Source: Isoptericola dokdonensis DS-3
Lineage (GTDB): Bacteria > Actinomycetota > Actinomycetes > Actinomycetales > Cellulomonadaceae
Assembly: GCF_001636295.1 (NCBI RefSeq)
Contig: NZ_CP014209.1
Location: 1,116,001-1,180,000 of the forward strand
Length of the DNA stretch: 64,000 nt
Reading direction: 5' to 3'
Each line of letters begins with the position of its first letter. Position 1 is the stretch's first letter. This document shows positions 48,340 to 50,000 of this stretch, one piece after another. Position numbers and translations under genes: made by a program. Under the pieces are notes generated by a model. The model had not been told where the DNA came from, searched no databases, and was given only the letters and a program-made list of their open reading frames with translations.

Positions 48340-49188
48340 ATGGACGCCCTGCTGCCCCTCGGACCCGCCCCGCGCCCCACCACCGACGACGACCTCGCCG
48401 CCCGGCTGGGCGACACCCTCGTCACGCTGGCCGCCGGTCGGGCCCAGGGCCTCGACGCCGCGAAGATCGTGCCGGTGCTCGACGGCGCCGACCTCGCCTC
48501 GCTCGACGTCGACCTCACCGGTGTCGCCGTCGGTCTGCCCACCGGGCAGCAGGCCGCCGTCGAGCACTGGCGACCCACCGTCGCGGCCCGCGAGGACGCC
48601 ACCCTGCGCACGCTGCGGATCGACGCGCACCCGCTGACCGCCGTCGACCTCCCCGTGGACGTCACGGCCGAGCTCGCCGGCGTCCGGTTCGCCTGGGTGT
48701 CGACCGACGACGGCCAGGTCGGCGCCGAGCTCGTCGAGCCCACCACCGACGCCCCCGTCACCGGCAGCGCCCGGGTCGCGGTCTCCCGCGCGGGCCTCGC
48801 CGGCACCGTCCAGGGGATGCTCGCCGTCGCGCTGCAGTCGAACGGCATCCAGCTCACCTCGTTCGACCTCGACGTCACCCAGTCCGGTCCCCGCGGCGCG
48901 GCCCTCAAGGCGTCCGCCGGGATCCGCAAGGGCATGTTCCTGTCGGCCACCATCACCGCCACCGCCTCGGCCGCCGTCGACGACACCATGGTGCTCACCG
49001 TCGGCGACGTCCAGCTCTCCAGCGGCAACCCCCTCGTCGGTGCCATGCTCGGCGCGTTCCGCGGCAAGATCGAGGCGGCCGCCGGCCAGCGCATCGACCT
49101 GGCCGCCTCCCTCCCGCCGGGCGTCCACCTCACCGACGTCACCCTCGACGTCGGTGACGACGTCGTCATCGCCGCCCGCCTCGGCTGA
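48340..49188 (+). CDS. Hypothetical protein, strand-rich (possible lipid-binding fold)
   Basis: 282 residues without signal peptide or membrane helix. It is built of alternating beta-type segments (DLTGVAVGLP; TLRTLRIDAHPLTAVDLPVDVTAELAGVRF; LTSFDLDVTQSGPRGAALKASAGIRKG; LPPGVHLTDVTLDVGDDVVIAARLG). The pattern recalls DUF2993/LmeA-like phospholipid-binding proteins, but I cannot claim membership. Predicted near-leaderless (TAGGCT, 8 nt). Its stop is the edge of the 20-bp repeat arrays. Confidence 0.7.
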   Translation: MDALLPLGPAPRPTTDDDLAARLGDTLVTLAAGRAQGLDAAKIVPVLDGADLASLDVDLTGVAVGLPTGQQAAVEHWRPTVAAREDATLRTLRIDAHPLTAVDLPVDVTAELAGVRFAWVSTDDGQVGAELVEPTTDAPVTGSARVAVSRAGLAGTVQGMLAVALQSNGIQLTSFDLDVTQSGPRGAALKASAGIRKGMFLSATITATASAAVDDTMVLTVGDVQLSSGNPLVGAMLGAFRGKIEAAAGQRIDLAASLPPGVHLTDVTLDVGDDVVIAARLG

Positions 49189-49189
49189 C

Positions 49190-49320
49190 GAGTCAGCGCT
49201 CGTCGGCGCGAGTCAGCGCACGTCGACGCGAGTCAGCGCAGGTCCCGGCCGGTCAGCGCAGCCCAGCACGAGTCAGCGCGAAGGTGCCGCGAGTCAGCGC
49301 ACGAAGGCGCGAGTCAGCGC
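49190..49320 (+). repeat. Left array: seven GAGTCAGCGC cores at 20-bp spacing
   Basis: Cores begin at 49190, 49210, 49230, 49250 (variant CGGTCAGCGC), 49270, 49291 and 49311; steps are 20, 20, 20, 20, 21, 20. The 10-nt spacers between cores differ. All read in the plus direction. The array starts two bases after the 48340 gene's stop. Confidence 0.9.
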
Positions 49321-49358
49321 TCGTCCGAAGCTCCCGACGCGGCGCGTGACGTGAAAGG

Positions 49359-49449
49359 ACGTCGGGGGATGCCGCGCGTCGTCGTCGATCCCGGAGTGGA
49401 GCGCCCCCTGGGGCGCGTGAACGCGACGACGCGCGGCATCCCCCGACGT
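49359..49449. repeat. Central hairpin with perfect 26-bp arms
   Basis: Arms 49359-49384 (ACGTCGGGGGATGCC then GCGCGTCGTCG) and 49424-49449 are perfect complements. Inside the 39-nt loop a second hairpin GCGCCCC/GGGGCGC (49401-49416) forms. It could be a bidirectional terminator for the convergent genes or the centre of a larger element. Confidence 0.85.
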
Positions 49450-49465
49450 ACGGACCCGACGGTGT

Positions 49466-49535
49466 GCGCTGACTCGCGCCGAGGAGCGCTGACTCGCGGC
49501 AGTCCACGCTGACTCGGCCGAATCTGCGCTGACTC
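49466..49535 (-). repeat. Right array: four inverted cores at 20-bp spacing
   Basis: GCGCTGACTC (the complement of the left core) begins at 49466, 49486, 49506 (variant ACGCTGACTC) and 49526, exactly 20 bp apart. The orientation is opposite to the left array. It ends 12 bp before the DUF1772 stop. Confidence 0.9.
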
Positions 49536-49547
49536 GCGCCCACGCCG

Positions 49548-50000
49548 TCAGGCGAGGACGAAGCACAGGCAGGCGGCGGCACCGGCCGCGGTGCGGACGT
49601 GGTTCCAGCGGAGCCACGGGCCGACGAACCGCTCCCACTCGGCGGCCGGGTCGGTCGCGGCGTCGAGCCGCTGGTTGAGGGGCACGTTGCGCAGGCCGGT
49701 GACGCCGAGGACGCCGACGACGGCGAGCACGGCACCGGCGACGGCCCAGGGTGCGCCGTCCCCGCCGGTCACCGGTCCGGCCACGGCCGCCGCGACGGGC
49801 ACCACGAGGGTCGCGACGAGCAGCACGCCCAGCGGCGGGCGCACCGCCGTGACGTTGATGGACCGCATGGCGGCGGCCGCGGCGTCGGGCGGGAGCCGGC
49901 GCAGACCGGCCATGACGAACGCCGAGAACGCGTACAGGACGCCGCCGGCGAGGCCGGTGACGACAGCGGCCGCGACGGCGAGGGCCGCGTAGGCGCTCAT
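49548..50000 (-). CDS. DUF1772 membrane protein
   Basis: 150 residues, four membrane helices. AAVVTGLAGGVLYAFSAFVMAGLRRLPPDAAAAAMRSIN is typical of DUF1772 (anthrone oxygenase-like), with GLRNVPLNQRLDA and WERFVGPWLRWNHVRTAAG later. The enzyme activity is unproven in bacteria. ATG overlaps the NmrA-like gene's stop (ATGA), so they form an operon facing the AraC gene. Confidence 0.85.
   Translation of the reverse strand: MSAYAALAVAAAVVTGLAGGVLYAFSAFVMAGLRRLPPDAAAAAMRSINVTAVRPPLGVLLVATLVVPVAAAVAGPVTGGDGAPWAVAGAVLAVVGVLGVTGLRNVPLNQRLDAATDPAAEWERFVGPWLRWNHVRTAAGAAACLCFVLA

What the first reader, a model, noticed from the sequence alone, without database searches (positions are those of the whole stretch)
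49190..49535. Two inverted arrays of a 20-bp-phased repeat around a long hairpin, between convergent genes
Seven GAGTCAGCGC cores in one direction and four in the other, all 20 bp apart (one step is 21), flank a hairpin with perfect 26-bp arms that itself contains a second hairpin. Spacers between cores differ, so the spacing is kept rather than the sequence, which suggests a protein binding one face of the DNA every two helical turns. The arrays fill the spacer (all but about 14 bp) between two stop codons. I know of no named element of this form. It could be a repetitive extragenic element, a nucleoid-protein or chromosome-organising site, a degraded mobile element, or a bidirectional terminator.
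Basis: seen in the sequence. Interest (0 to 1): 0.8.

Follow-up and report, generated by a model that had tools for sequence, protein, structure and literature searches.

The report
Phased repeat arrays at gene ends
Around many gene ends in one bacterial genus sit rows of a short DNA word repeated every 20 bases; the word differs between species but the rows can stay at the same gene ends, which suggests a site read by an unknown DNA-binding protein rather than a chance duplication.

Summary
The genome has 391 copies of GAGTCAGCGC against 4 of the reversed word. Of 340 examined, 11 lie in predicted genes. Of 223 same-strand gaps of at most 130 bp, 210 are exact multiples of 20. Cores stay constant while spacers diverge (0.73 against 4.0 differences per 10 bp). 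Convergent intergenic regions are favoured (40 of 105, against 35 of 482 others). A sister species shares the sites (19 of 21). Five other species of the genus show the same 20-bp architecture with another core, CGAGGTAG. Their array sites coincide with this genome's more often than their other intergenic regions do (7 of 23 against 10 of 476, p = 2e-6). So the core has dialects while some positions are kept. The central hairpin is a covarying element without an Rfam match. No Y1 (RAYT-type) transposase was found in 21 genomes. Best reading: a REP/BIME-like but new variant, probably sites for a cooperative DNA-binding protein at gene ends. Protein and function are unidentified.

The parts
48340..49188 (+). 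Convergent gene A (left); its TGA stop is at 49186-49188, 1 bp before the first unit
   Evidence: ORF list and home-made gene caller; in two relatives (G021, G084) the orthologue appears to end at the corresponding TGA and no array follows
49190..49320 (+). Forward array: 7 units (core GAGTCAGCGC) at 49190, 49210, 49230, 49250 (two mismatches), 49270, 49291, 49311
   Evidence: direct reading
49359..49449 (+). Hairpin element: perfect 26-bp arms 49359-49384 / 49424-49449; member of a covarying family of which 26 copies were aligned
   Evidence: RNA-parameter fold of 49186-49545 z = -10.5
49385..49425 (+). Conserved apical part of the hairpin: internal loop (left strand UC...CCCGRAGUGGAG, right strand CGUGAACGCG) and inner 6-bp stem 49401-49406 / 49411-49416 with two positions that show compensatory GC/CG changes
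   Evidence: invariant columns; pair counts; copies were picked by a loop-motif match, so loop conservation is partly by selection
49466..49535 (-). Reverse array: 4 units at 49466, 49486, 49506 (one mismatch), 49526
   Evidence: direct reading
49548..50000 (-). Convergent gene B (right), stop codon at 49548-49550
   Evidence: ORF list, gene caller

Best explanation
A family of gene-end boundary arrays seen in 7 of 18 species of the genus. SHOWN: a ~13-bp word (SGCGAGTCAGCGC in this species and its sister; CGAGGTAG-based in five others) is repeated in 20-bp phase, in one or both orientations. It lies most often in convergent intergenic regions, frequently within 30 bp of a stop codon, and at some loci around a conserved palindromic hairpin. 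The word is conserved against diverging spacers, and positions overlap between species whose word differs. INFERRED: a sequence-specific DNA-binding protein recognises the word on double-stranded DNA; the 20-bp phase (about two helical turns) puts bound copies on one face so that they bind cooperatively; the complex marks or closes the gene end (a roadblock to convergent RNA polymerases, or a clamp for the supercoils they create); the word drifts together with the protein, giving species dialects, while arrays grow and shrink by tandem duplication.
For: 391 cores against 4 control in the genome; of the 340 in fetched stretches 11 are inside predicted CDS. Phasing: 210 of 223 (this genome, fetched stretches) and 119 of 122 (sister) gaps of at most 130 bp are multiples of 20, although ordinary orthologous intergenic DNA of the two species shows 162 indel events to 538 substitutions. 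Core 0.73 against spacer 4.04 differences per 10 bp (291 comparisons). Convergent bias p = 3e-14 (this genome), 2e-9 (sister), 6e-4 (five other species pooled). Within 30 bp of a stop: 42 of 80 sides of convergent array regions here, 19 of 48 in the sister. Shared sites: 19 of 21 with the sister; 7 of 23 against 10 of 476 across dialects. No covariation between would-be stem positions of the core, so no sign that it is read as a small hairpin.
Against: No transcription or binding data. In this species array orientation relative to the gene is nearly even (50 sense, 42 antisense of 92 gene 3' ends facing an array; sister 31 and 28 of 59), which a simple polar roadblock would not predict. Even in stretches chosen around arrays, 65 of 105 convergent regions have none. 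Samples of 20-123 kb from eight other species of the genus showed none; three more species were sampled only slightly or not at all. Position sharing could also come from insertion hot spots.
Confidence: 0.42

Rival explanations
1. A selfish or neutral REP-like satellite. The 20-bp unit spreads by an unknown mechanism into safe intergenic sites and expands by tandem duplication; positions are shared because they are old or are the only tolerated sites, and dialects arise by drift and local re-expansion. No host function.
For: Tandem growth is visible (adjacent spacers identical in 52 of 291 comparisons; alternating 40-bp dimers at 1602868); copy number differs between the sister species at shared sites; REP families in other bacteria also lie downstream of genes and between convergent genes (abstract of PMC3733652); another genus (G052) carries dispersed ~65-bp palindromes built from the same 10-mer.
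Against: Core far more conserved than spacer; few spacer length changes (22 of 432 not 10 bp, with 9-11 allowed; open-ended gap list); no Y1/RAYT transposase in 21 genomes; sites coincide across dialects.
Confidence: 0.33
2. An RNA-level element: opposed arrays plus the hairpin fold into a long stem at the 3' ends of convergent transcripts and act as a bidirectional terminator or mRNA-stabilising 3' end.
For: Window locus folds at -245.3 against -182.5 kcal/mol for shuffles (z -10.5); arrays face each other at our locus and at loci in other species; in the five CGAGGTAG species 27 of 35 gene 3' ends face a sense-oriented array; the hairpin family covaries.
Against: Many clusters run in one direction only or point outward; no sense bias in this species and its sister; other GC-rich terminator-like hairpins lie beside arrays at the same gene pair in two species; hairpin stems show 8 G-U cells against 30 mismatches outside one invariant U-G pair (my tally), which I would not expect under RNA-level selection; no T run longer than 3 next to the hairpin on either strand.
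Confidence: 0.17
3. The arrays are the multi-site ends of a transposon or its miniature derivative (as in Tn7- or IS21-like elements with several transposase sites per end; recalled), with the hairpin as the remnant of the interior.
For: The composite forward array - hairpin - reverse array recurs (12 of 26 listed hairpins in this genome enclosed; also in G141 and G084).
Against: Array number and orientation vary, including outward and single arrays; positions are shared across dialects; hairpins also occur with no listed core within 450 bp (12 of 26). Target duplications were not searched for formally.
Confidence: 0.05
4. A DNA-uptake signal with species dialects, as in Neisseriaceae.
For: Short word in many copies, species dialects and frequent inverted pairs at gene ends are described for DUS (passages of PMC3630211).
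Against: The passages call intragenic DUS common, while 11 of 340 cores here are inside predicted CDS; arrays at fixed 20-bp phase are not mentioned in the passages I saw. Competence genes were not examined.
Confidence: 0.03

Closest known systems
REP / BIME elements (repetitive extragenic palindromes and bacterial interspersed mosaic elements)
   Same: Short repeats in hundreds of copies, predominantly downstream of genes and between co-directional and convergent genes, single or in groups, many in opposite orientation (PMC3733652 abstract and background)
   Different: Unit is not palindromic and shows no internal covariation; strict 20-bp phase; no Y1/RAYT gene found. A word search of that paper's main text for actinobacter, Isoptericola and Cellulomonas gave none
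REPIN-like dispersed palindromes
   Same: Inverted pairs of units; the G052 elements (core-9-core-7-inverted core-9-inverted core) look like this (the REPIN comparison is from recall and a search listing)
   Different: Arrays here have 1-13 units when up to 3 mismatches are allowed, variable topology and shared positions between species
DNA uptake sequence (DUS) dialects of Neisseriaceae
   Same: Species-specific variants of a short word with a shared kernel (PMC3630211, passages); here CGAGnnAG is shared
   Different: DUS are common inside genes too; the role here is unknown and the copies are in phased arrays
Intrinsic terminators at convergent gene pairs
   Same: Position, and a GC-rich hairpin in between
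   Different: Conserved asymmetric internal loop, no T run; at L074/L243 arrays exist in addition to another terminator-like hairpin
CRISPR arrays
   Same: Constant repeat with variable spacers of constant length
   Different: 10-bp repeat and 10-bp spacer against repeats of 24-48 bp (PMC3733652 background); spacers share a weak consensus; at least 75 clusters, many with inverted copies. cas genes were not searched for

Membership tests
REP/BIME | Many intergenic copies, biased to gene 3' ends and convergent pairs | tested here: met
REP/BIME | Unit itself a 20-40 nt palindrome that forms a stem-loop | tested here: not met
   core logo is asymmetric; mutual information of would-be stem columns 8-19, 9-18, 10-17 is within the shuffled range
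REP/BIME | GTAG or CGTC tag at one end | tested here: inconclusive
   CGAGGTAG dialect contains GTAG, GAGTCAGCGC does not
REP/BIME | Cognate Y1/RAYT transposase in the genome (GTAG class) | tested here: not met
   PF01797: 0 of 21 genomes including G000, G116, G052; 5 of 14 control genomes rang
DUS/USS | Copies common inside coding genes as well | tested here: not met
   11 of 340 cores inside predicted CDS
DUS/USS | Specific receptor and enhanced transformation | not testable with these tools
   needs experiment
Intrinsic terminator | Hairpin followed by a T run at transcript 3' ends | tested here: inconclusive
   no T run longer than 3 beside the hairpin on either strand (by reading); transcript ends not available
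Transposon ends / MITE | Fixed terminal inverted repeats and target-site duplication | tested here: inconclusive
   topology is variable; short array-less orthologous spacers in two relatives; duplications not searched formally
Known structured RNA (Rfam 15), for the hairpin | Match above a family's gathering score | tested here: not met
   window 49100-49650: 10 matches at E up to 10, the highest 18.8 bits against a gathering score of 40
Protein-bound phased array | A protein that binds the core cooperatively | not testable with these tools
   needs pull-down or ChIP

The most novel reading that the evidence does not exclude
A new class of bacterial chromosomal boundary: gene-end arrays read by a co-evolving DNA-binding protein whose target word switches between species (GAGGTAG against GAGTCAG) while sites stay in place, constraining supercoils or blocking polymerases between convergent genes and sparing the terminus region, with a palindromic DNA hairpin as a second component.
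Probability: 0.27. Interest if true: 0.9.

Novelty: new variant of a known kind. Interest (0 to 1): 0.74.

Why it matters
Bacterial intergenic repeats are usually discussed as selfish elements or as structured RNA. Here a short word is kept in strict 20-bp phase at gene ends and changes as a dialect between species of one genus while some sites stay the same. That makes an old question, whether such repeats are bound, selected and used, directly testable: the dialects predict protein-DNA co-evolution, and single arrays can be deleted. It also points to a covarying hairpin family in this genus that Rfam does not hold.

Tried and rejected
Chance or local duplication: rejected. Restriction to two species: the exact word is restricted and I first read this as a recent burst; period scans then showed other dialects, so that reading was dropped. 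RAYT-mobilised REP: no PF01797 hit. Core as a mini-hairpin: no covariation. Simple 3'UTR element in sense orientation: no bias in this species and its sister, though 27 of 35 gene ends in the five CGAGGTAG species face a sense array. Plasmid or viral origin: no plasmid match, no viral match for the exact pair; two viral contigs with a CGAGGTAG triple are 10-bp tandem repeats; the phage collection was not searched. Other genera: no 20-bp arrays in 400 kb of hairpin-centred stretches from 11 genomes of 4 genera. Literature: eight searches, of which I saw listings only; two papers seen in part: PMC3733652 (abstract, background, start of results, passages) and PMC3630211 (passages). The cognate protein was not found. 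No call names the genus; the names Isoptericola and Cellulosimicrobium in two searches were guesses.

Full report
What is in the window. Between the stop codons of two convergent genes (49188 and 49548) lie seven plus-strand units, a hairpin and four minus-strand units. Nine of the eleven units are exact GAGTCAGCGC. All steps are 20 bp except one of 21.

It is a genome-wide family. The chromosome (3,826,972 bp, one contig) has 391 exact cores; the same word read backwards has 4. I fetched 60 stretches, most around known arrays and a few unselected, and called genes with a home-made coding model (648 genes, 88.6% coding, not validated against an annotation). With the window, 340 of the 391 cores lie in this sequence: 182 convergent, 107 co-directional, 37 divergent, 11 inside predicted CDS, 3 at edges, in 75 clusters. 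Of all intergenic regions in those stretches, 40 of 105 convergent, 27 of 379 co-directional and 8 of 103 divergent ones carry exact cores (Fisher p = 3e-14 for convergent against the rest). The sister species gives 24 of 37, 15 of 106 and 4 of 34 (p = 2e-9). The stretches were chosen around arrays, so the absolute rates are inflated; the contrast between classes is less affected. In 42 of 80 sides of convergent array regions the nearest core is within 30 bp of the stop codon (19 of 48 in the sister). In 11 cases here and 7 in the sister the stop codon lies inside an antisense core.

Phase and conservation. Among 223 same-strand gaps of at most 130 bp between exact cores in these stretches, 210 are exact multiples of 20 and 220 within 1 bp; in the sister 119 and 120 of 122. 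In 32 array-free orthologous intergenic regions the two species differ by 538 substitutions and 162 indel events (the ratio depends on my gap costs). Adjacent spacers differ at 4.04 of 10 positions and adjacent cores at 0.73 (291 comparisons; sister 3.94 and 0.82 in 210). Units with up to 3 core mismatches were admitted; their numbers fall off (340, 155, 38, 18), so the cut-off does not by itself create the contrast. Spacers with many changes but few length changes argue that the spacing itself is constrained. Of 19 opposite-strand neighbours within 80 bp, 10 are outward at a fixed 12-bp offset; in the sister 2 of 6. Tandem growth is evident: identical neighbouring spacers (52 of 291) and alternating dimers. 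The two species prefer different core variants (CAGTCAGCGC 66 here and 6 in the sister; GACTCAGCGC 56 in the sister, and none among this genome's distinct units).

Distribution. The exact word is far above control only here and in G116, 2 of 18 genomes of the genus, with 44 copies in G052 of another genus. The phased pair was found in 3 of 396 genomes of the order, two of them with one copy each; G116 and G052 were not in that sample. Among named genomes, from which this one and near ones may be left out, 3 stretches with one match each were found. G116 is a sister species: median protein identity 92.9% over 117 proteins in syntenic stretches (matches above 60% only). Of 65 orthologous intergenic regions, 21 have an exact core in either species: 19 in both, one only here, one only in G116. 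Orientation is usually the same; in the 14 pairs I printed the spacers do not match by eye. At the window's own locus two more distant relatives (G021, G084) have short spacers with no array.

Dialects. A relative's hairpin locus (G141) showed the same architecture with another core. Period scans of sampled stretches found 20-bp arrays of CGAGGTAG words in G141 (CGAGGTAGCGC), G058 (CGAGGTAGGCAA), G084, G103 and G110, and none in samples of G021, G042, G072, G094, G127, G132, G137 and G145 (20-123 kb each). G149 was seen for 3.4 kb only and G150 and G151 not at all. One G084 locus (L224, from 12184) has nine exact units, a hairpin and four inverted units between convergent genes, like the window. 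Of 61 orthologous intergenic pairs, 6 have a CGAGGTAG array and all 6 have a GAGTCAG array in this genome; 10 others have an array only here. Wider test: 7 of 23 array regions in the five species abut a gene end orthologous to an array-bearing gene end here, against 10 of 476 array-free regions of the same stretches (odds ratio 20, p = 2.4e-6; within convergent 3 of 12 against 1 of 92, p = 0.0045; within co-directional 4 of 11 against 6 of 279, p = 2e-4). Limits: two of the seven are neighbouring regions in G110; orthology means best BLAST hit above 50% identity; many stretches were centred on hairpins; the 16 array regions without a partner may lie in unfetched parts of this genome or be truly unshared. 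In the five species 27 of 35 gene 3' ends face a sense array, but 50 of 92 here and 31 of 59 in the sister.

The hairpin. Twenty-six copies (19 from this genome, 7 from the sister) align. Of 37 pairs 24 show changes on both sides and 96.9% of cells pair; none of 500 shuffles and no slide reaches this. The copies were taken by a loop-motif match, so loop conservation is partly by selection; the stem was not selected. Outside one invariant U-G pair I count 8 G-U cells and 30 mismatches in the table; under RNA-level selection I would expect more G-U, so a palindrome kept at the DNA level is an alternative (inference). Rfam has no match above gathering in 49100-49650. The loop motif (up to 3 mismatches) is in 30 of 150 family genomes, in 5 of 25 genera and in all 16 genus members of that sample. 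The covariance model finds 5-10 copies per genome, with at most 10 candidates scored per genome, in all 8 genus members sampled and 1 copy in one other genus, out of 396 genomes of the order. In this genome 12 of the 26 listed copies (35 counted) are enclosed by inward cores, 2 more lie within 450 bp of a core and 12 have no listed core near (cores outside the fetched stretches were not in the list).

Chromosome position. dnaA lies at 2.665 Mb here and 0.057 Mb in the sister; I take it as the origin. Loci with three phased exact units, collapsed by hand, fall 12, 14, 9, 3 into quarters by distance from dnaA (38 loci, p = 0.007 for the last). In the sister 6 of 168 phased pairs lie in the far quarter (my count from the list, which shows the first 100 places, in coordinate order to 3.33 Mb). 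The sites are largely shared, so this is not independent, and lower gene conservation near the terminus is a possible cause.

Related elements. In G052 the same 10-mer builds dispersed ~65-bp palindromes with a 19-bp period (7 loci read), REPIN-like. No PF01797 gene was found in 21 genomes. Eleven genomes of four other genera gave no such arrays in 400 kb.

Judgement. Established within these samples: a family of 20-bp-phased, gene-end arrays in one genus, with species dialects and partly conserved sites. Likely: selection on the word by a double-strand DNA-binding protein. Open: the protein, and whether the arrays stop transcription, manage supercoils, organise the chromosome, or merely persist.

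Noticed in passing
window 49359-49449; also L039, L040, L056, L060, L072, L113 and others: A structured hairpin family of this genus with strong stem covariation, an invariant asymmetric internal loop and few G-U pairs; no Rfam match at the window copy.
   Followed up: partly
L106-L112 (G052): Another genus carries dispersed ~65-bp palindromes made of two direct and two inverted copies of the same 10-mer (some degenerate) with a 19-bp period, in some copies with complementary spacers.
   Followed up: partly
arrays in G000 and G116: A recurrent spacer GAACTTCGTT (7 exact in G000), which between a core ending in T and one starting with C makes the palindrome TGAACTTCGTTCA.
   Followed up: no
gene ends in G000, G116, G141, G058, G103: Array cores can supply the stop codon of the gene: TGA in antisense GAGTCAGCGC cores (11 and 7 cases) and TAG in sense GAGGTAG cores (3, 4 and 2 cases).
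   Followed up: partly
L074 (G000) and L243 (G110): Arrays of different dialect lie next to another GC-rich terminator-like hairpin at the same convergent gene pair.
   Followed up: no
L057 (G000) and L128 (G116): At an orthologous intergenic region the enclosed hairpin lies in opposite orientation in the two species, as recombination between the inverted arrays could produce.
   Followed up: no
G000 and G116 chromosomes: Arrays are sparse in the quarter of the chromosome opposite dnaA.
   Followed up: partly
G000:C1:76900-77625: Inward arrays 535 bp apart enclose a small predicted gene (L035 4014-4463, minus strand) rather than a hairpin.
   Followed up: no
L248 and L249 (viral contigs): Short 10-bp tandem repeats of CGAGGTAG plus two bases, different in period from the arrays.
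   Followed up: yes
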